From IMG/VR virus record IMGVR_UViG_3300050821_002714, positions 1-24,734 of that record: a stretch of 24,734 nt of DNA. One strand, 5' to 3'. Under the pieces are notes generated by a model. The model saw only the letters and a program-made list of their open reading frames with translations. It did not search any database and was not told the DNA's origin. The translations under genes were made by a program, and so were the position numbers. The stretch's first letter is position 1, and every line of letters starts with the position of its first letter. Below, piece after piece: positions 13,614 to 21,791 of this stretch. This DNA comes from a virus.

Positions 13614-13903
13614 CGCGCCACCTGCTGCCCGTTGCCGTTCACCGGCATGCCCGAGAGCGCCCCGGGCCCGGCCACGATGAGGCCCGACATCTGATCGCCC
13701 ACCGACTTGATCAGCTGCGCCCAGTCGCGCACGTCATCGCGTGCGAGCAGCACCGACAGGGTGGTGGAGGCGGTGCGGACCGTCAGGACCATCCGCTGCC
13801 CCGCTGGCGTATCCATCAGCGCGGCCGACAACTGCGCCGGGGTCTCGCCGAGCAGGCCGTTGCCAGTGTCGAACGGGGGCGGCTGCGGGTTCGGTGTCGT
13901 CAT
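13610..13903 (-). CDS. Small hypothetical protein between portal and protease
   Basis: This 97-residue protein starts with ATG at 13903, overlapping the portal stop by four bases. An in-frame GTG at 13924 would add seven residues but lies inside the portal gene. It begins MTTPNPQPPPFDTGNGLLGE, then PAQLSAALMDTPAGQRMVLT and VRTASTTLSVLLARDD, DWAQLIKSVGDQM. It is short, soluble and mixed alpha/beta. Coupling to both neighbours points to head assembly; no family is recognised. Confidence 0.65.
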   Translation of the reverse strand: MTTPNPQPPPFDTGNGLLGETPAQLSAALMDTPAGQRMVLTVRTASTTLSVLLARDDVRDWAQLIKSVGDQMSGLIVAGPGALSGMPVNGNGQQVAR

Positions 13904-15471
13904 GCCGACACCAGGGAGTTCCACGCGGCGAGCCGCATCTGCATGAGGGCCTCCAGGGCGTCAGGGGCGGGTTCCGCATCGGGTGCGGGGGCGGGCGGGG
14001 CCGGAACCCACCCGGGCGGCAGCGCAGGCTCTTGCGACGCCTTCTCGACCACGCCCATGTCGGGCAGGCCCACGGTCTCGAGGACGTCGGCCGGGTCGTA
14101 GCCGGCGGCAACGAGCGCCGCCGCCGCCTCCGACTTGTTTTTGAGTTCGAGCGCGTCGCCCTCCCTATTGCCGGTGACGGGGTCATCGAAGTCCATTTCG
14201 ACGCCCTCACCGGTGGAGCCGAAGAGCGGCAAATAGGAGCAGGCGAGGGTGTCTTTCCACCTGTCCAACCTGTCCATGATCAGGAACGACTCGAAATGCT
14301 CCTGCGCGGTCTCCGCGTTAGCGCGGTTGACGTCTTCGACGCTGCCCAGCATCGCCTTGTGCATCGCAAACGCCTCACGGATGACGTCCCTGCTGATGTT
14401 GCGGAGGTTCCCGAAATCCATGTCACGGATGGTGTGCGCGTTCGGCACCCAGGTGGCGCCCTGCTCCAGGACTGCGACGCGGTGCGCGGCGGCAACCCCC
14501 CGGTGCGTTTCCCGCCACCGGTTCGTCAGCTCATTCCATTCGTCATCCTGGAGCCTTTTATCAACCTGAATGACGCCGCCCGGGGTCGCCGAATTCAGGA
14601 AGAAATTCCTGTTCCAGGCGGCGCTGTATTTCGCGGCGTCGATGTCGATAAGGATGCTCTGAATGGGGCCGAGCCCGTGATAAGGATCGAACGGGTTCGG
14701 GTATTTGATCATGATCACGTCGTCGGGCATGAGCGGCACCAGCTCACCGCGGGGGCCCGTGTAGACGTAACCGGCCAGGTACTTCTCGCGGTCCGGGACC
14801 GGTTCCATGCGGTCGGGGCGGACCGTCCACAGCCCGAGCGGGAGGGATGAGCGCGGGTCGCGCTGGATGACCAGGTAGGCCTCGCCGGTCAAGTCCAAGT
14901 AGGTCTGGCTCAGCTCCCGCAGTGCGAACCCGCTCGTGAAGGGGTTGGGCTTCTTCCACACCGTCAGCGCCTGGTGCTTGATGACCTCGGTGCGCTGGTC
15001 GGAGCCTTTGTCGCCGGTGGTGTAGCGGCGGCGCCCGTCCACTGGTTGTTCCCGGTACATGCGCCATTGCTTCTTGGCGGTCTGCCGGGCCAGCATGCTG
15101 ACGATGCTGAACACGGTGCCCGAGGCCCCGTAGGCGCGCATGTAGCCTTCGGGGTCGCTGTTGCCGCCGCCGGACAGGCTCGTCAGGGAGTGGCTGCCGC
15201 CGCCGGCGTAGGGGACGGGGCTGGCGGGGGCCTTGGCGAGGATCTTCCCTATCAGGCTGGGCATCAGACGGCCCGCAGGACGGAGATGTAGGCCCGCTTC
15301 GAGGACGATGATCTTCGTGTTGGGGTCCGGGATGACCGCGCGGATCCGGTTGCCGATCTCCTCGAACTCGACCTCGGTCAGGCGCTCGGGGTACTTGAGG
15401 ACGAGGATGTCGCCGGGCCCGAGGGCCAGGCGTTCGACGTCGGTGACCGCGAGCAGCTCGGCGCCGGTCAT
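13900..15471 (-). CDS. Portal protein, preceded in frame by a small domain
   Basis: This 523-residue frame starts with ATG at 15471, overlapping the upstream stop by four bases. Residues 1-69 (VERLALGPGDILVLKYPERL, RIRAVIPDPNTKIIVLEAG) resemble a small actinophage protein usually encoded alone next to the portal. From Met70 (15264) the sequence MPSLIGKILAKAP reads like a normal portal N-terminus. The portal part (454 residues) has family features such as VFSIVSMLARQTAKKQWRMY, LTGEAYLVIQRD, DDVIMIKYPNPFDPYHGLGP and FFLNSATPGGVIQVDKRL. Portal subunits form the dodecameric DNA channel. No stop separates the two parts, so translation gives a fusion unless it restarts at 15264, where no clear ribosome-binding site is seen. 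The C-terminus is Pro/Ala-rich. Confidence 0.9.
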   Translation of the reverse strand: MTGAELLAVTDVERLALGPGDILVLKYPERLTEVEFEEIGNRIRAVIPDPNTKIIVLEAGLHLRPAGRLMPSLIGKILAKAPASPVPYAGGGSHSLTSLSGGGNSDPEGYMRAYGASGTVFSIVSMLARQTAKKQWRMYREQPVDGRRRYTTGDKGSDQRTEVIKHQALTVWKKPNPFTSGFALRELSQTYLDLTGEAYLVIQRDPRSSLPLGLWTVRPDRMEPVPDREKYLAGYVYTGPRGELVPLMPDDVIMIKYPNPFDPYHGLGPIQSILIDIDAAKYSAAWNRNFFLNSATPGGVIQVDKRLQDDEWNELTNRWRETHRGVAAAHRVAVLEQGATWVPNAHTIRDMDFGNLRNISRDVIREAFAMHKAMLGSVEDVNRANAETAQEHFESFLIMDRLDRWKDTLACSYLPLFGSTGEGVEMDFDDPVTGNREGDALELKNKSEAAAALVAAGYDPADVLETVGLPDMGVVEKASQEPALPPGWVPAPPAPAPDAEPAPDALEALMQMRLAAWNSLVSA

Positions 15472-15692
15472 TCGGCGCTCACCGACTGCTCGATGCGGTC
15501 CGCAGCTTCACGGAGCATCGCGACGAGGCCAGCGCGGAAGGCGATCATGTCGGCTTTGACCGTGATGGGAAGGACCGGATCGACGCCCGCGATTTGGCCG
15601 ATGGTGAGTGTCGTGGGGATCTCGACCGTGCCGAGGTCCACTTCGGTACCAGCGAAGACCAGCAGGACCGGCACGGAGAGCGCGGCGCTCAT
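15468..15692 (-). CDS. Small hypothetical protein upstream of portal
   Basis: This 74-residue protein starts with ATG at 15692 in a four-base overlap (ATGA) and ends in another ATGA overlap with the portal ORF. It has a beta-rich first half (VPVLLVFAGTEVDLGTVEIP) and an amphipathic C-terminal helix (FRAGLVAMLREAADRIEQSV). No membrane segment or metal site is evident. Position suggests head assembly; the function is unknown. Confidence 0.65.
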   Translation of the reverse strand: MSAALSVPVLLVFAGTEVDLGTVEIPTTLTIGQIAGVDPVLPITVKADMIAFRAGLVAMLREAADRIEQSVSAE

Positions 15693-15928
15693 TCGAGCTT
15701 CCAGTCCAGCAACAGCACTGTGACGCCCGTGACGACCCACCCGGCGATGGTGTGCGCATGGAACGCGCCGACATCCACGCAGGCCAACCCGGCGATGGTC
15801 AGGGCGCTGCCGGACAGGCGCTGCGCGACGGCCTTGGCGTGCGCGGCGGCCTGGCGTGCGGCCAGCGCGGCGATGCCGGGGACGCGGGGGCGCCTGCCTG
15901 GGATCGCACCGGTACTGATGGCCGCCAT
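15689..15928 (-). CDS. Small membrane protein, possibly leaderless start
   Basis: This 79-residue protein starts with ATG at 15928. The N-terminal 38 residues are basic and Ala-rich (RRPRVPGIAALAARQAAAHA), followed by two hydrophobic segments (SALTIAGLACVDVGAFHAHT and IAGWVVTGVTVLLLDW), so it is probably an inner membrane protein with a positive N-terminus inside. It is the first gene of the head operon after the 397-bp gap. It lacks a Shine-Dalgarno site, and a -10-like hexamer ends seven bases before its ATG. No family is recognised. Confidence 0.65.
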   Translation of the reverse strand: MAAISTGAIPGRRPRVPGIAALAARQAAAHAKAVAQRLSGSALTIAGLACVDVGAFHAHTIAGWVVTGVTVLLLDWKLE

Positions 15929-15935
15929 GCCGCAA

Positions 15936-15963
15936 ATCGTACGCCCTAAAAGCGCAGATTCAA
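15936..15963 (-). promoter_or_regulatory. Possible promoter for the head operon
   Basis: On the minus strand TTGAAT (15963-15958) and TACGAT (15941-15936) are separated by 16 bases; TACGAT fits the actinobacterial TANNNT -10 consensus. The -10 box ends seven bases before the ATG at 15928, so transcription would begin at or next to the start codon and give a leaderless message. The call rests on consensus resemblance plus the terminator upstream, which would otherwise cut these genes off. Confidence 0.4.
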
Positions 15964-16025
15964 CAGATCTTCCCGTTTACACGTGGTGAAACAGGAGAAT
16001 CTTCGGTCCGCCCTTCCGCCGGTAG

Positions 16026-16262
16026 GATTCGATCACCGCCGACCACCACCCCGGAAGGGCTCCGCCGATCGCCGCCCCGACCCTCCTCGACCGGTTCGCG
16101 GGCCTGATCGATGAACCCGAACCCGCGCGCACCCTGCGCGGGATGCTCCTCGTGGTCGCCGAGCATGTGGAGCGGCACGGGCGGGACTGCCCGCAACGGG
16201 CGGCAGCTGTTGACCTGCTCGCCGAGGCGGCCGACCTCGGATGCCAGGCGGTCGGGACCTGA
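16026..16262 (+). pseudogene. Plus-strand coding frame without a start, probable remnant
   Basis: In the gap between the Ro60 terminator and the head operon, a plus-strand frame is open for 78 codons from just after a TAG (16023-16025) to a TGA (16260-16262). Its codons are strongly GC-ending and it reads like real protein: APTLLDRFAGLIDEPEPART, LRGMLLVVAEHVERHGRD, QRAAAVDLLAEAADLG. It is the only plus-strand coding signal in the window. The first ATG is at 16143 and would give 40 residues; no ATG, GTG or TTG precedes it. It may be a 5'-truncated or frameshifted gene, or use a rare start such as ATC at 16032, which follows a GGTAGGA sequence. No family is recognised. Confidence 0.45.
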
Positions 16263-16274
16263 GCGGGGGCAGCG

Positions 16275-16302
16275 AAAAGCCCCGCCCACACGGGACGGGG
16301 CT
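16275..16302 (-). terminator. Intrinsic terminator after the Ro60 gene
   Basis: On the minus strand a 10-bp stem (AGCCCCGTCC pairing with GGGCGGGGCT, one G-U pair) with loop CGTGT is followed at once by TTTT. It begins 23 bases after the Ro60 stop. It would end the Ro60 transcript and separate it from the portal and capsid genes. No T-run follows on the plus strand, so it is one-directional. Confidence 0.8.
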
Positions 16303-16325
16303 CAACGCTCAGCAGCTACCGGGAC

Positions 16326-18026
16326 TCAGCCCGCAGAGACCCACGGCCAATCGGCGGAGCGACCCCTCTCAAGCATCGACAGGACCCGGAACCCTGCATC
16401 GGTCAGCCCGCCGATCGCCACCCGCAGCCCGCTACCAGACGGCGCGTGACCGCGCTCGTAGCCGGCCAGATTGAACGTGACCAGCGGCGTGGTCTGCGGG
16501 ATGACCCCGCCGACATCCTCGCCGCTCGCCTGCTCGTCGGTGAGGATCACCACCCGGGTGTGTCCAGCGAAGTGCTGGCGGAGAGCGGCGGCGGTATCGG
16601 TGCCGCCACCGAGGAAATACCCGCCGTCCTTCCACCGGTCGATGGACTTCAGCAGCGACTCGCCCCGCCGAAGCGGGAACTCCTTCGTCTTCACGCCCGG
16701 CGCGTCGTTGAAGTAGTACCGCGCGGAGGAGAACGACACCACGTCGGCCTGCTCGCACCGCTGCGCGAGGGAGATCCCGAACAGGGCCGCGGCGTCCCAC
16801 CGCATCAGCGTCCCGTCCTTGGAGAACCCGGCGTTCATCGACGAGCTGGTGTCCACCAGGATCAGCGTGCGCCCCTTCAGCGCCGGGATGTTCCCGATCG
16901 ACGCGGTGAGTGCCTTGTCGAGCGGGTGAGCCCACCGCAGGGACGGCGCGGCCCGGTACGCGGACAGGAACCGCATCGGCAGCTGCCGGGAGCGGGCGAC
17001 CTGCTCCGGGTCCGCCAGCTTCGCCGCGACCTGCTCGGCGAGCTTGTCGGAGACGCCGGCCTGGTCGAAGTTGCGGAGGTTCCGCAGCAGCGCCATGTAG
17101 CCCATGGACGGGATGACCGCGGACCACGCTGCGGCGTCCATGGGTCCCTGCAACCAGCCCGCCAGCGCCTCCCAGGTGATCCCTGCGTCCTTAAGCCTCT
17201 GCGGGTCGTTCAGGACGGCCCGGCGGTTACCGGCTGGCAGCGCCAGGAGCTCGGCGCGGGCGCGCAGCATGCCCAGCGTCTCGGGGATCGGGTTGTCGCG
17301 GCCGTGACGGCGGTCCAGGGCGTGGGCGAACAGGTCGCCCTGCCATGCCGCCCACGCCTCGCTGTGGCTGCCCGCGATCGGGTGCACGAGGTCGATGACA
17401 TCACCGAACCGGTAGCCGGTGGTGGCGGTGTCGTACTTCGCGAGGTTCCGCTCGGTGTAGAGCCGGGCGACCGCGTCGGCGACACCGCGCTTGACCGGCT
17501 TGGGCAGGTTCCGGCCGTACTTCGAGGTCCAGTAGGCGAGGATCTCGCCCGGCTCGTCGGCGCGCTGGAGTACGGAGTCGATGACGCGCCGGTTCGCGGT
17601 CGCCTGGTAGGTGAGGCTGTCGCCACCGAACACGGCCGCGCCCGGGCCTTGGCCGGCTTCGTGGGTGCGCCGCTCGCGGGCTCCCGCAGATTCCAGGCGC
17701 GCGTGGACGTACTCGGCCGCGCCGACGATGGACGCCGACCGCATGTTGCCTTCGCCGCGAAGCCATTCGAGGAGGCCCGCAGTCCAGTCGGGGTCGTCAA
17801 CGGCGAGATGCCGTACGAGCTGGACGTACCGGTCGTCGCGGTTCTTGGCGCGCTCGTAGAAGGTGTCTTCGCCGACGAGGTTGGTGACCGCGAGCAGGAA
17901 CAGTTCGCCCTTCGCGTCCCGGGCGAAGCCGGGTGCTCCTTCGAAGGTGCGGCCGGTTGGGGTCTGCTCGGACTTGACCGGGCTGGACACCGCGGCGCGG
18001 GTGACGGGCCTGTTGAACTTGGACAT
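16326..18026 (-). CDS. Ro60 / TROVE domain RNA-binding protein
   Basis: This 566-residue protein matches Ro60 (Rsr-like) proteins, rings that bind misfolded or single-stranded RNA ends in the central hole and Y RNA on the outer face. Residues about 40-365 form the helical TROVE/HEAT-repeat part (ELFLLAVTNLVGEDTFYERA, TAGLLEWLRGEGNMRSASI, MGYMALLRNLRNF). Residues 386-550 form a von Willebrand A domain with an intact MIDAS: D392-S394-S396 in VDTSSSM, T476 in GGGTDTA and D497 in ILTDE. The start is ATG at 18026 with GAGAGGAG upstream; an in-frame GTG at 18047 would lie before that site. An intrinsic terminator follows, and a Y RNA-like sequence lies directly upstream on the same strand. It sits between terminase and portal but is not a virion assembly gene, so it behaves like a phage moron. 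Confidence 0.92.
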   Translation of the reverse strand: MSKFNRPVTRAAVSSPVKSEQTPTGRTFEGAPGFARDAKGELFLLAVTNLVGEDTFYERAKNRDDRYVQLVRHLAVDDPDWTAGLLEWLRGEGNMRSASIVGAAEYVHARLESAGARERRTHEAGQGPGAAVFGGDSLTYQATANRRVIDSVLQRADEPGEILAYWTSKYGRNLPKPVKRGVADAVARLYTERNLAKYDTATTGYRFGDVIDLVHPIAGSHSEAWAAWQGDLFAHALDRRHGRDNPIPETLGMLRARAELLALPAGNRRAVLNDPQRLKDAGITWEALAGWLQGPMDAAAWSAVIPSMGYMALLRNLRNFDQAGVSDKLAEQVAAKLADPEQVARSRQLPMRFLSAYRAAPSLRWAHPLDKALTASIGNIPALKGRTLILVDTSSSMNAGFSKDGTLMRWDAAALFGISLAQRCEQADVVSFSSARYYFNDAPGVKTKEFPLRRGESLLKSIDRWKDGGYFLGGGTDTAAALRQHFAGHTRVVILTDEQASGEDVGGVIPQTTPLVTFNLAGYERGHAPSGSGLRVAIGGLTDAGFRVLSMLERGRSADWPWVSAG

Positions 18027-18032
18027 GGAAAA

Positions 18033-18059
18033 GGTCTCCTCTCGCACCGGGAGGAGACC
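18033..18059 (-). promoter_or_regulatory. Hairpin enclosing the Ro60 ribosome-binding site
   Basis: GGTCTCCTC (18059-18051) and GAGGAGACC (18041-18033) form a perfect 9-bp stem with a nine-base loop. The 3' strand holds the AGGAG site of the Ro60 gene, and TTTT follows directly, six bases before the ATG. It could hide the ribosome-binding site, and could also define the 3' end of the upstream Y RNA by termination or processing. Confidence 0.65.
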
Positions 18060-18298
18060 CGCGTTCAGAGATCGCGCCCGAGATCGATGTCGGCGAAGGA
18101 GACGTAGACGCTCTGCCGTTGAGCTACAGCGACCTTCCGGTCACCGGCGGGACTCGAACCCGCACCATCCCATTAACAGTGGAAGTAACCCTCACCTGCG
18201 CACCGGGCACGCTCTGAAGTTGTGTCCCTCCCGAGATCAGGTGTGACGCCCGGGATATTTCGCCAAATGAAGTACCGGGTGTCGAACGCACCGGGAGG
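18043..18298 (-). repeat. 12-nt direct repeats flanking the Y RNA region
   Basis: CCTCCCGGTGCG occurs at 18298-18287 and again at 18054-18043 on the minus strand. Its core CCCGGTGCG occurs a third time at 18207-18199, inside the Y RNA stem. Each outer copy is the 5' part of a hairpin stem. The segment CGGGAGG at 18233-18227 can pair with either outer copy, so the repeats offer mutually exclusive folds. Confidence 0.6.
18064..18218 (-). ncRNA. yrlA-like: Y RNA with a circularly permuted tRNA-like module
   Basis: The terminal stem is UUCAGAG (18218-18212) with CUCUGAA (18070-18064), then a 1x3 bulge, then GUGCCCG (18210-18204) with CGGGCGC (18080-18074). A further helix joins 18196-18190 to 18098-18092. 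Inside is a tRNA-like module in permuted order. It comprises an anticodon-type arm 18184-18168 (5-bp stem, loop CUGUUAA with GUU in the middle), a 4-nt variable region and a T arm 18163-18147 (GCGGG, UUCGAGU, CCCGC). Then come a 7-bp acceptor stem CGGUGAC/GUCGCUG (18146-18140 and 18133-18127) closed by CGGAAG, UA at 18126-18125 like U8-A9, and a D arm GCUC-AACGGCA-GAGC (18124-18110). Bacterial Y RNAs beside Ro60 genes are known to mimic tRNA. The fold is drawn by eye; ends and promoter are not determined. Confidence 0.75.
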
Positions 18299-18299
18299 G
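18226..18299 (-). ncRNA. Second structured RNA element upstream of the Y RNA
   Basis: An 8-bp perfect stem CCCTCCCG (18299-18292) with CGGGAGGG (18233-18226) encloses inner helices CCCGG/CCGGG (18279-18275 with 18253-18249) and ATTT/AAAT around a GGCG loop (18268-18257). It lies between the terminase stop and the Y RNA and contains no reading frame that looks coding. It could be a second, simpler Y-type RNA, a leader for the Y RNA transcript, or a processing signal. The rest of the gap, 18300-18360, shows nothing further that I can name. Confidence 0.45.
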
Positions 18300-18360
18300 T
18301 GCTGCCTTGAGGCTACGGCTTCCCGACCAAGATCGCATACCGGTTACCGCGAGACGGCGG

Positions 18361-19743
18361 TCACCCTAGCCAGCGCATGCGCGGGGTGCGGCCCATGTCC
18401 CGCTCGGCCGTCATGTACCTGACGCAGTCACACCCGTCGTCCATCTCCTTCACCGGCTCCTCCTTCAACTGCCCACCCGGCCGGATCGCCCACACATACC
18501 CCGGGAGCTCCTCCGCCGTGCACGTCGGCCGCTTCGCATCCACCAGGGACTGATCCCGCTCCACCACGCTGTCCCGCAAGATCGCCACCCGCGGCTTCCC
18601 GTCCCCGGCGAGCTTCATCCGCGACTGCACGGCCTGAATGCCCTCCGTCACCGCCTTGTGCGCCTTGGTCGTCGACATCCCGAGGTGCTTCTCCAGGGTG
18701 GCGCGGCCCTCCGCGTCGTGGTCGCAGATCAGCCCGCGCGGCTTCGGTTCGATCCACCTGCGGCGGCCGGCCTGGACGGCGGCCAGGAAAGGCTCGTCCC
18801 GCTGATCGACGCCCGGAACCGGCTCGGTGACGATGCCGAGGATCTGCTTGGCGTGGTCTTCCACCAAGCGGCCGGTGTGGAAGATCTCCCGGTACAGGTA
18901 CAGCCGGCCGTCCGGGTCTTCCGCCCAGCACTGGAGGACGAACGGGTGGGTGTACCCGAAGTCCACGACCCACCAGCGGGTCCAATGGTCGGGGATGGGG
19001 AACCGGTCGACGAGGTGTACGGCGTCGTCCCACTGCTCGTAAATGACGCCTTCGGCGCTAGCCCAGCGGCCGTCGACCAGCCGCAGCTTCCGGACGCCGG
19101 TGAGCTTGTTCAGGATCTCGAAGTACGCCGCGCCGCGCTCGGTAAAGGTGCCGTCGGTGTTGACGTAGGCGGGGTTGTCGCGGTGCCGGGAGGTGAGGCG
19201 GACCATGCCGCCCTGGTTGGCGCGCTGGTTCAGCCAGTGCTGCTCATGGGCGGGGTTGCACGCGGCGATGACCTGCTGCCACGGAAGCGCGGCGTTCCGC
19301 AAGCGGGTCAGGATCGCTTCCCAGTCGTCGACCACCAGCTCGGTGGCCTCGTCGGCGAACACCAGGTCGTAGTCGCTGGACATGATCTTCTCGGGCTTGT
19401 CGAGCCCGCCGACGACGATGCGGGAGCCGTTGCTGTAGCGGAACGCGGCGGCTTCCTTCTGTGACCCGCCGTACCAGCGGACGACCCGCTCGCCGATCGC
19501 CTCCTTAGCGACCTTGTTCTCATAGGTGACGAGGGTCGTGCTGCCGAGGGACACGGCGGTTTTGCGGACGATCAGGCACCGGATGCCGGGATGTTGCAGG
19601 CAGGCGAGGTGCAACCGGAACAGCGCGGCCACGCTCTTGCCGGTGCCGGCGGGGCCGTCAAGAACGACTTCGGAGTCTCGGGTCGAGAACAGCTTGAGGG
19701 CGGCGCCGCGCGGTTCGTACCGGTGGGTGAGGGCGGCGGTCAT
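18361..19743 (-). CDS. terL: Terminase large subunit
   Basis: This 460-residue DNA-packaging motor starts with ATG at 19743, overlapping the upstream stop by four bases. The ATPase part shows Walker A GPAGTGKS (30-37), Walker B LVFADE (127-132) with catalytic Glu132, and an ACNP coupling-type motif (161-164). The C-terminal RNase H-like nuclease shows its acidic residues in WWVVDFGYTHP (Asp261), LICDHDAEG (Asp341) and KEMDDGCDCVRY (Asp435-436 or Asp439). Length and order fit the family. A longer open frame continues upstream of the ATG, but that part is a shadow of the previous gene. The stop is followed by the Y RNA/Ro60 insert instead of the portal gene. Confidence 0.93.
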   Translation of the reverse strand: MTAALTHRYEPRGAALKLFSTRDSEVVLDGPAGTGKSVAALFRLHLACLQHPGIRCLIVRKTAVSLGSTTLVTYENKVAKEAIGERVVRWYGGSQKEAAAFRYSNGSRIVVGGLDKPEKIMSSDYDLVFADEATELVVDDWEAILTRLRNAALPWQQVIAACNPAHEQHWLNQRANQGGMVRLTSRHRDNPAYVNTDGTFTERGAAYFEILNKLTGVRKLRLVDGRWASAEGVIYEQWDDAVHLVDRFPIPDHWTRWWVVDFGYTHPFVLQCWAEDPDGRLYLYREIFHTGRLVEDHAKQILGIVTEPVPGVDQRDEPFLAAVQAGRRRWIEPKPRGLICDHDAEGRATLEKHLGMSTTKAHKAVTEGIQAVQSRMKLAGDGKPRVAILRDSVVERDQSLVDAKRPTCTAEELPGYVWAIRPGGQLKEEPVKEMDDGCDCVRYMTAERDMGRTPRMRWLG

Positions 19744-20312
19744 CGGCCGTGCGGGTCGTCGTAGATCTGCCCGTCGCGGCGTAGCCATTCCTGCGACTCG
19801 TGCCGCTCGGCCTCGAACAGCACGCTCTGTAGCCACCTGGCGAACAGGTCCTCGTCGCGCTGCTCTTCGATGTACGGCGGGATCGAATTGGTGGACCGCA
19901 CGGGAACGGTTCGGGTGGGGTCGCGGCTGTCGACCGCCTGAAACTCGACGATCAGACGACCAAACCACCCGGAGCCGAGGGGTTCGGCGCCCAGGAACCC
20001 GGCGTTCCCCGGTACGAGCGTCATGGTCCAGCCGGGCCGGTAGGTGTAGCGGTCGAGCTGCTGGCGGAGCCACGGCAGGGAGTCGTTCATGGCCGCCCTG
20101 TGGTCGTCGGGTGCGTAGATGTGGGTGCCGTCGTCGCGGACGCCCCTTGGCCGGTACGCCACGTCGCGGAACGTGGTGAGGGGTTCGATCGGCTCGGTCC
20201 ACAGTTCCGACAGCGGCGCGTACTCGGGCACCCGGTACGTCGTCGGCAGCGACCGCACGGTGAACCGTTTCCCGTCGGCCGGGCCGCCGCGCAGCTCGAT
20301 CGTGTACGTCAT
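19740..20312 (-). CDS. LRGGPADG-motif hypothetical protein
   Basis: This 190-residue protein starts with ATG at 20312 in an ATGA overlap and ends in an ATGA overlap with the terminase gene. It opens with MTYTIELRGGPADGKRF, a motif I have seen in short actinophage proteins of unknown role, then YRVPEYAPLSELWTEPIEPL. The remainder (WLRQQLDRYTYRPGWTMTLV, RLIVEFQAVDSRD, RWLQSVLFEAERHESQEWL) is soluble and mixed. Coupling to the terminase suggests a packaging or early function, but no function can be assigned. Confidence 0.7.
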   Translation of the reverse strand: MTYTIELRGGPADGKRFTVRSLPTTYRVPEYAPLSELWTEPIEPLTTFRDVAYRPRGVRDDGTHIYAPDDHRAAMNDSLPWLRQQLDRYTYRPGWTMTLVPGNAGFLGAEPLGSGWFGRLIVEFQAVDSRDPTRTVPVRSTNSIPPYIEEQRDEDLFARWLQSVLFEAERHESQEWLRRDGQIYDDPHGR

Positions 20313-21368: not shown

Positions 21369-21782
21369 TTAGAGCTGGTCAACGGGTACTCCCACGATCT
21401 CGTACGTCACCCCGCCCGACAGGGACACCTTCGTCTCACTGTCAGTGCCCAACAGCTTCGCTTCCCGTTCCGCCCACCCCCGGATCGCGTTCCACGCCGA
21501 AACGCGGTGTTCGACCGGCCCGGTCTTCGCGAGGGGGAGCAGGTGACTGATCGCTTCGTCGATCAGGGCGAGCTGCTCGGCGCGGTGCTGGGTGACCTCC
21601 AGGACAGGGACGGATTTGAGTGCCTGGATGTAGAGCTGGTGGGCGCGTTGCGGGGTGAACCCCATGCGGGCGCCGATTTGGGCGAAGGTGAGGCGTTGGC
21701 GGCGTAGTGCGACGACTTGGGTGCGTTTTTCGGCGGCGGTGATGGCGGTGTCGTCGCCGGGGTTGTGGGGTGGGTGTTTCAT
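21369..21782 (-). CDS. Helix-turn-helix protein, probable terminase small subunit
   Basis: This 137-residue protein starts with ATG at 21782, six bases after an AGGAGG site; a TTG one codon upstream is less likely. Residues 18-55 form a helix-turn-helix (AEKRTQVVALRRQRLTFAQI, RMGFTPQRAHQLYIQAL). A helical middle part (RAEQLALIDEAISHLLPLAK, WNAIRGWAEREAKLLG) would suit oligomer formation. The ending GGVTYEIVGVPVDQL is a short beta-type tail. Size, DNA-binding N-terminus and position before the large subunit fit a terminase small subunit that recognises the packaging site. Several genes lie between the two subunits, which is less usual, so a regulator is possible. Confidence 0.6.
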   Translation of the reverse strand: MKHPPHNPGDDTAITAAEKRTQVVALRRQRLTFAQIGARMGFTPQRAHQLYIQALKSVPVLEVTQHRAEQLALIDEAISHLLPLAKTGPVEHRVSAWNAIRGWAEREAKLLGTDSETKVSLSGGVTYEIVGVPVDQL

Positions 21783-21791
21783 CAACGCCTC

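What the first reader, a model, noticed from the sequence alone, without database searches (positions are those of the whole stretch)
16275..18299. A self-contained Ro60-Y RNA cassette inserted between terminase and portal
A full-length TROVE/Ro60 gene with an intact MIDAS has a Y RNA-like sequence just upstream on the same strand and its own intrinsic terminator downstream. It breaks the usual terminase-portal order and has no assembly role, so it looks like a moron. In Deinococcus and Salmonella, Ro60 with Y RNA works with exoribonucleases such as PNPase. A phage version could redirect host RNA decay, stabilise phage RNA or handle tRNA fragments. Ro60 in phages is known in general; this arrangement and its role here are not, to my knowledge, described.
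Basis: partly seen in the sequence, partly recalled or inferred. Interest (0 to 1): 0.85.

Follow-up and report, generated by a model that had tools for sequence, protein, structure and literature searches.

The report
Phage Ro60 cassette with paired Y RNAs
A virus of a soil actinobacterium carries, between two DNA-packaging genes, a gene for the RNA-quality-control protein Ro60 preceded by two different partner RNAs and a hairpin that hides the gene's ribosome-binding site; phage Ro60 with such RNAs is known in outline, but the paired RNAs and the hidden ribosome site appear undescribed and suggest that the unit regulates itself.

Summary
Window 16326-18026 (-) encodes a Ro60/TROVE protein (Pfam TROVE 1.9e-15; AlphaFold model matches vertebrate Ro60, Deinococcus Rsr and Thermus-phage phiLo Ro60; MIDAS conserved). 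The 5' interval holds two Y RNAs: a YrlA-type RNA with a tRNA-mimic module (18209-18076; 126 bits, E 5e-24 with a model trained without it) and, 5' of it, a 76-nt module-less Y RNA (18300-18225; 60 bits, E 3e-11). A third element, 18060-18032, is a hairpin that pairs the Shine-Dalgarno of Ro60. The same layout occurs in scores of actinobacterial phages and genomes: Ro60 SD unpaired probability 0.03 against 0.44 for other ORFs of the same loci. Relatives with the same terminase and portal but no Ro60 also lack the Y RNAs, so the cassette behaves as a moron-like unit. I file it as a new variant of a known kind, the Ro60-Y RNA RNP. Likely mechanism (anatomy shown, function inferred): a Ro60 RNP that can recruit host PNPase through the YrlA-type module, with Ro60 synthesis throttled by the SD hairpin, possibly by Ro60 itself. 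Expression and binding are untested.

The parts
16326..18026 (-). Ro60/TROVE protein, 566 aa, ATG at 18026; HEAT-like ring plus VWA domain with MIDAS
   Evidence: Pfam TROVE and phrog_850; AF2 model pLDDT 85, Foldseek to Ro60 1yvp, 2i91, 9nfa, Rsr 2nvo and phage phiLo 9l5y
18064..18218 (-). YrlA-type Y RNA: core 18076-18209 plus basal stem extension 18218-18212/18070-18064
   Evidence: R2 model 126.4 bits, E 5e-24; Rfam YrlA 28.5 bits; covariation in relatives; basal stem swap test over relatives p 2e-15, though the window's own basal stem alone is not better than swapped ones; MFE helices
18110..18163 (-). tRNA-like module: T-arm 18163-18147 (GCGGGTTCGAGTCCCGC), middle hairpin 18146-18127, D-arm 18124-18110 (within GTAGCTCAACGGCAGAGC)
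   Evidence: YrlA alignment, helices, conserved in relatives
18225..18300 (-). short module-less Y RNA: Ro60-binding-type stem with a small apical loop and no tRNA-like module
   Evidence: R1 model trained without the window: 60.3 bits, E 3.3e-11; inner-stem swap test p 1e-11 over relatives
18032..18060 (-). hairpin GGGTCTCCTC-ccggtgcga-GAGGAGACCT that pairs the Ro60 Shine-Dalgarno (AGGAG 18040-18036), followed by TTT; loop region contains CCGGTGCG, the Y RNA 5' motif
   Evidence: SD unpaired probability 0.0002 locally, 0.015 in the full leader; conserved in relatives; loop motif
16279..16296 (-). intrinsic-terminator-like hairpin plus T run after Ro60
16253..18357 (.). extent of the cassette, absent from relative L083, which has 378 bp with a 108-aa ORF there
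   Evidence: blastn of window to L083, L083 sequence
18361..20202 (-). terminase large subunit (flank; N-terminal part of the ORF probably overcalled)
   Evidence: Terminase_3 and phrog_2
13900..15471 (-). portal protein (flank)
   Evidence: Phage_portal 2e-56

Best explanation
It is a horizontally mobile Ro60-Y RNA cassette. SHOWN: one strand carries, in order, a module-less Y RNA, a YrlA-type Y RNA with a permuted tRNA-like module, a hairpin enclosing the Ro60 SD, Ro60, and a terminator. INFERRED: the leader and Ro60 come from one transcript whose Y RNAs accumulate in excess because the SD hairpin limits translation of Ro60 (in this phage, where a T run follows, it may also end the Y RNA transcript). 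Ro60 binds the stems of both Y RNAs. The YrlA-type RNA tethers Ro60 to host PNPase (and perhaps other tRNA-binding enzymes), as in the RYPER complex of Deinococcus, so that structured or damaged RNA is fed to the exonuclease. The module-less RNA binds Ro60 without tethering and so gates it. The SD hairpin, which in this phage carries the Y RNA 5' motif in its loop, may let free Ro60 repress its own synthesis.
For: Protein. Two Y RNAs. Covariation of the YrlA-type RNA: 98.8% of cells paired, 15 of 27 pairs changed on both sides, no shuffle of 500 as high, slid versions far lower. Arm-swap tests: basal stem p 2e-15, module-less inner stem p 1e-11, SD hairpin p 3.5e-4, control in the ORF p 0.39. 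SD occlusion: 135 Ro60 leaders, median P(unpaired) 0.033 against 0.435 for 375 other ORFs of the same loci, p 7e-24. All 301 R1 hits in 155 loci lie on the Ro60 strand, nearly all just 5' of Ro60. Relatives without Ro60 (L083, L086) have no Y RNA. RYPER mechanism of Rsr, YrlA and PNPase from the literature: PMC8394870, PMC7790460.
Against: No expression, binding or PNPase data. No promoter found, so a single transcript is assumed. Only 36 of 142 related leaders have a T run after the SD hairpin, so termination is not its general role. The Y-motif in the loop occurs in only 6 of 142 leaders. The swap test for the SD hairpin is weaker than for the Y stems. In L060, L070, L071 and phage Atuin some Y RNAs lie downstream of Ro60, where a leader role is impossible.
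Confidence: 0.6

Rival explanations
1. An ordinary phage Ro60-YrlA locus in which the hairpin before the start codon is simply the intrinsic terminator of the Y RNA; overlap with the SD is economy, not regulation.
For: In this window the hairpin is followed by TTTT, and 36 of 142 relatives have a comparable T run. Phage Ro60 and YrlA are known.
Against: Most relatives keep the SD paired without a T run; SD occlusion is far above other ORFs of the same loci.
Confidence: 0.25
2. The YrlA-type RNA acts mainly as a tRNA decoy against host anticodon nucleases or tRNA-directed defence, with Ro60 as its carrier.
For: Competitive inhibition of an anticodon nuclease by the tRNA-like domain was proposed for Salmonella YrlA (PMC7790460); many related phages carry Ro60 inside tRNA arrays.
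Against: The conserved module-less Y RNA has no tRNA mimicry; the window phage has no tRNA array in the 24.7 kb held; no defence-family match.
Confidence: 0.12
3. 18139-18210 is a real tRNA-Asn gene.
For: ARAGORN calls it.
Against: Rfam tRNA reaches only 20.8 bits (gathering 29) against YrlA 28.5 and R2 126 bits; the T-arm precedes the D-arm; in relatives ARAGORN gives a different isotype at the same place (Asn, Gln, Ile, Ser, Arg, Glu, Met, Thr).
Confidence: 0.01

Closest known systems
Deinococcus radiodurans Rsr-Y RNA-PNPase (RYPER)
   Same: Ro60-fold protein (Foldseek to 2nvo, E 9e-13) encoded next to a Y RNA; module thought to tether PNPase
   Different: Here a phage cassette with two Y RNA types in tandem and an occluded SD; PNPase tethering untested
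Salmonella rsr-yrlBA-rtcBA RNA-repair operon (YrlA, Rfam RF02553)
   Same: YrlA-type tRNA-mimic module; more than one Y RNA
   Different: RtcB/RtcA/RtcR not seen among the window genes examined; Y RNAs precede Ro60 rather than follow it; divergent sequence (28.5 bits to the Rfam model)
Ro-like RNA binding proteins of Streptomyces, Gordonia and Arthrobacter phages (Alone3, BRock, VanLee, Neville, Kela, Atuin)
   Same: Full-length Ro60 at 39-47% identity, with R2 Y RNA hits nearby in all six
   Different: Those sit in tRNA arrays or other regions, with no terminase or portal annotated in the stretches viewed; their Y RNAs are unannotated or called tRNA
Ro60 of Thermus phage phiLo (PDB 9l5y)
   Same: Phage Ro60, same fold
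   Different: About 21% identity; its RNA context was not examined

Membership tests
Ro60/TROVE protein | TROVE domain by sequence profile | tested here: met
   PF05731 57.4 bits, cut-off 23
Ro60/TROVE protein | Ro60 fold (HEAT-repeat ring plus VWA) | tested here: met
   AF2 pLDDT 85; Foldseek E 1e-15 to Ro60, TM 0.69-0.71
Ro60/TROVE protein | MIDAS residues | tested here: met
   D392, S394, S396, D497 invariant, T476 nearly invariant
Ro60/TROVE protein | binds Y RNA and misfolded RNA | not testable with these tools
   needs co-purification
YrlA Y RNA (RF02553) | Rfam gathering score | tested here: not met
   28.5 of 69 bits, E 0.0021; filed as YrlA-type, not as an RF02553 member
YrlA Y RNA (RF02553) | long 5'/3' stem with conserved motifs plus T-arm then D-arm module | tested here: met
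YrlA Y RNA (RF02553) | gene next to Ro60 | tested here: met
Module-less Y RNA | Ro60-binding-type stem without tRNA-like module, next to Ro60 | tested here: met
   R1 hit, E 3.3e-11; conserved in relatives
RYPER | physical tether to PNPase | not testable with these tools
   no interaction data
tRNA | canonical cloverleaf above gathering score | tested here: not met
   20.8 of 29 bits
Phage moron | extra unit absent from close relatives, with own terminator and promoter | tested here: inconclusive
   absent from L083 and L086 and terminator present; promoter not found

The most novel reading that the evidence does not exclude
Ro60 controls its own synthesis: the SD hairpin is a Y RNA mimic (its loop carries the Y RNA 5' motif CCGGUGCG in this phage and in five other loci), so free Ro60 binds and holds the SD closed, while abundant Y RNA titrates Ro60 and opens it. 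Two Y RNA types from one leader thereby set the ratio of PNPase-tethered to untethered Ro60.
Probability: 0.25. Interest if true: 0.72.

Novelty: new variant of a known kind. Interest (0 to 1): 0.5.

Why it matters
How cells and phages balance Ro60 against its Y RNAs is, to my knowledge, an open question. A conserved leader with two Y RNA types and an occluded SD gives a small, testable system in which the ratio may be set in cis. It also explains tRNA calls next to phage Ro60 genes (Alone3 tRNA-Ser, VanLee tRNA-Arg) that are better read as Y RNA modules, and it supplies covariance models that detect Y RNAs where Rfam at its gathering score does not.

Tried and rejected
Rfam at gathering scores finds nothing in the window, and only three tRNA-model matches over 18 relatives. 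ARAGORN tRNA-Asn rejected (isotype differs at the same place across relatives). DNA search of annotated phages found no near relative. PADLOC: no match. MAFFT alignment of the SD hairpin was not structure-aware and was replaced by arm-swap tests. Folding energy of the Y RNA core alone is not better than shuffles (z 0.53), nor is the short one (z -0.37); the evidence for both rests on homology and covariation. Model R1 missed the window's YrlA-type RNA (11.4 bits); R2 was built for it. A competing pairing between the SD-hairpin 5' arm and the Y RNA 5' strand (first idea) was dropped: with the complete leader each element folds on its own. The key papers (Chen 2014; Sim and Wolin 2018; Sim 2020) are not in the library, so novelty of the module-less RNA and of the SD hairpin could not be checked against them.

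Full report
WHAT WAS CLAIMED. A Ro60 gene with a Y RNA sits between terminase and portal as a moron-like cassette.

THE PROTEIN. The ORF 16326-18047 (-) matches TROVE (1.9e-15), VWA_2 (1.8e-4, below its cut-off) and phrog_850, RNA-binding protein (2.5e-46). The start is most likely ATG 18026. A model from 28 relatives (pLDDT 85, pTM 0.85) matches vertebrate Ro60 with RNA (1yvp, 2i91), human Ro60 complexes (9nfa), Deinococcus Rsr (2nvo) and Ro60 of Thermus phage phiLo (9l5y); nothing else is significant. The MIDAS residues are conserved. Membership in the Ro60 family is therefore tested and met; RNA binding is not testable here.

THE RNAS. Rfam YrlA aligns to 18169-18107 (-) with T-arm, middle hairpin and D-arm in the permuted order of YrlA, but below the gathering score. 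Relatives of Ro60 from IMG/VR and from GTDB genomes show the same motifs at a fixed distance from the Ro60 start. A covariance model of 25 such RNAs without the window hits 18209-18076 with 126.4 bits, E 5e-24. Its structure covaries: 98.8% of cells paired, 15 of 27 pairs changed on both sides, none of 500 shuffles as high. Directly 5' of it is a second, shorter Y RNA. A model of 32 module-less RNAs without the window hits 18300-18225 with 60.3 bits, E 3.3e-11, and finds 134 places in 75 viral loci and 167 in 80 bacterial loci, all on the Ro60 strand and nearly all in the kilobase 5' of Ro60. By my tally of those tables 58 of 75 and 76 of 80 loci have at least one hit, and many have two to five Y RNAs of about 75, 100-120 and 140 nt. 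Because the model describes the shared stem, it also recognises the longer forms. Arm-swap tests over relatives support the basal stem (p 2e-15) and the module-less inner stem (p 1e-11). Sequences are related, so these p-values overstate independence.

THE SD HAIRPIN. Between the YrlA-type RNA and the start codon is GGGTCTCCTC-ccggtgcga-GAGGAGACCT-TTTCC-ATG (18060-18024). It pairs the SD; P(unpaired) is 0.0002 locally and 0.015 within the full leader. Over 135 Ro60 leaders the median is 0.033, against 0.435 for 375 other ORFs of the same loci (p 7e-24; the effect holds in viral and bacterial loci apart). The controls are mechanically chosen ORFs, so some may not be real genes. The arms exchange together (p 3.5e-4; control windows in the ORF p 0.39). 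In 36 of 142 leaders a T run follows, so in those it may double as a terminator. In six leaders, including this one, the hairpin loop carries [CT]CGGTGCG, the Y RNA 5' motif, at the same place, -24 to -26; shuffles give 0.11 on average and never six. This suggests descent from, or mimicry of, a Y RNA 5' arm.

CONTEXT. L083, from the same metagenome, shares the terminase and portal block (portal 90% identical) and matches window 15681-16252 at 92% and the terminase end at 18358, but has 378 bp with a 108-aa ORF in place of window 16253-18357. L086 has terminase and portal close together without Ro60. Neither has a Y RNA at E below 10 with R1 or below 1 with R2. L085 has Ro60 and three Y RNA hits in the same interval with other ORFs before it; its Ro60 belongs to another supported group than the window's, whose sister is L004 (99% support), which suggests separate acquisitions. 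Across 163 Ro60s viral and bacterial rows interleave, with at least 16 changes forced by supported branches. Gain and loss cannot be told apart for the single site.

PHAGE ISOLATES. In Alone3 the annotated tRNA-Ser(gct) and in VanLee the annotated tRNA-Arg(tct) next to Ro60 lie inside R2 hits (locus 2270-2412 and 2204-2338) and are better read as Y RNA modules. R2 hits also occur near Ro60 in BRock, Neville, Kela and Atuin; annotated tRNAs elsewhere in these stretches give only weaker, mostly partial hits.

MECHANISM. By the literature, Rsr and YrlA form a double ring with PNPase that degrades structured RNA (PMC8394870, PMC7790460). I infer the same for this phage. The module-less RNA cannot tether by that route and would occupy Ro60 only. 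The occluded SD would keep Ro60 below its RNAs; autoregulation by Ro60 through the Y-like loop is a further inference at about 0.25.

NOVELTY. Ro60 in phages is documented in the library (PMC7824862) and in the PDB; YrlA-type RNAs and more than one Y RNA at an rsr gene are known (PMC7790460). The combination of a conserved module-less Y RNA, a YrlA-type RNA and an SD-occluding hairpin was not found in the papers I could search, but the central papers are not held, so this is a statement about the search, not about the field.

Noticed in passing
L002 2659-2674 against window 18259-18244: Two contigs of the same virus are identical over 5.5 kb except one 16-nt block inside the module-less Y RNA; in L002 the block continues as the reverse complement of the 5' strand of the neighbouring YrlA-type RNA. 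Template switching between tandem copies or an assembly chimera.
   Followed up: partly
L167 2274-2347 (phage Alone3), L170 2204-2275 (phage VanLee): Annotated tRNA-Ser(gct) and tRNA-Arg(tct) next to Ro60 appear to be YrlA-type Y RNA modules.
   Followed up: yes
L060 4923-5177, L070 4841-4916, L071 4822-5250, L169 4401-4828: Y RNA hits downstream of Ro60 instead of upstream.
   Followed up: no
L147, L149, L153, L155, L156, L160, L162, L163, L166 just before Ro60: A Streptomyces subgroup has the variant ...GAATTCGGGGGAATTC... (or close to it) at the SD hairpin, possibly a different switch.
   Followed up: no
L053, L054, L057, L061, L063, L065: Ro60 lies inside phage tRNA arrays (up to 21 tRNAs in 7.6 kb).
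   Followed up: no
L171 1729-2481 (phage Kela): An annotated RNA ligase directly precedes Ro60, fitting an RNA-repair setting.
   Followed up: no
window 21369-21785 (-): 138-aa protein matches phrog_645, labelled 'RNase E', 4e-16; it lies before the terminase and may instead be a small terminase or DNA-binding protein.
   Followed up: no
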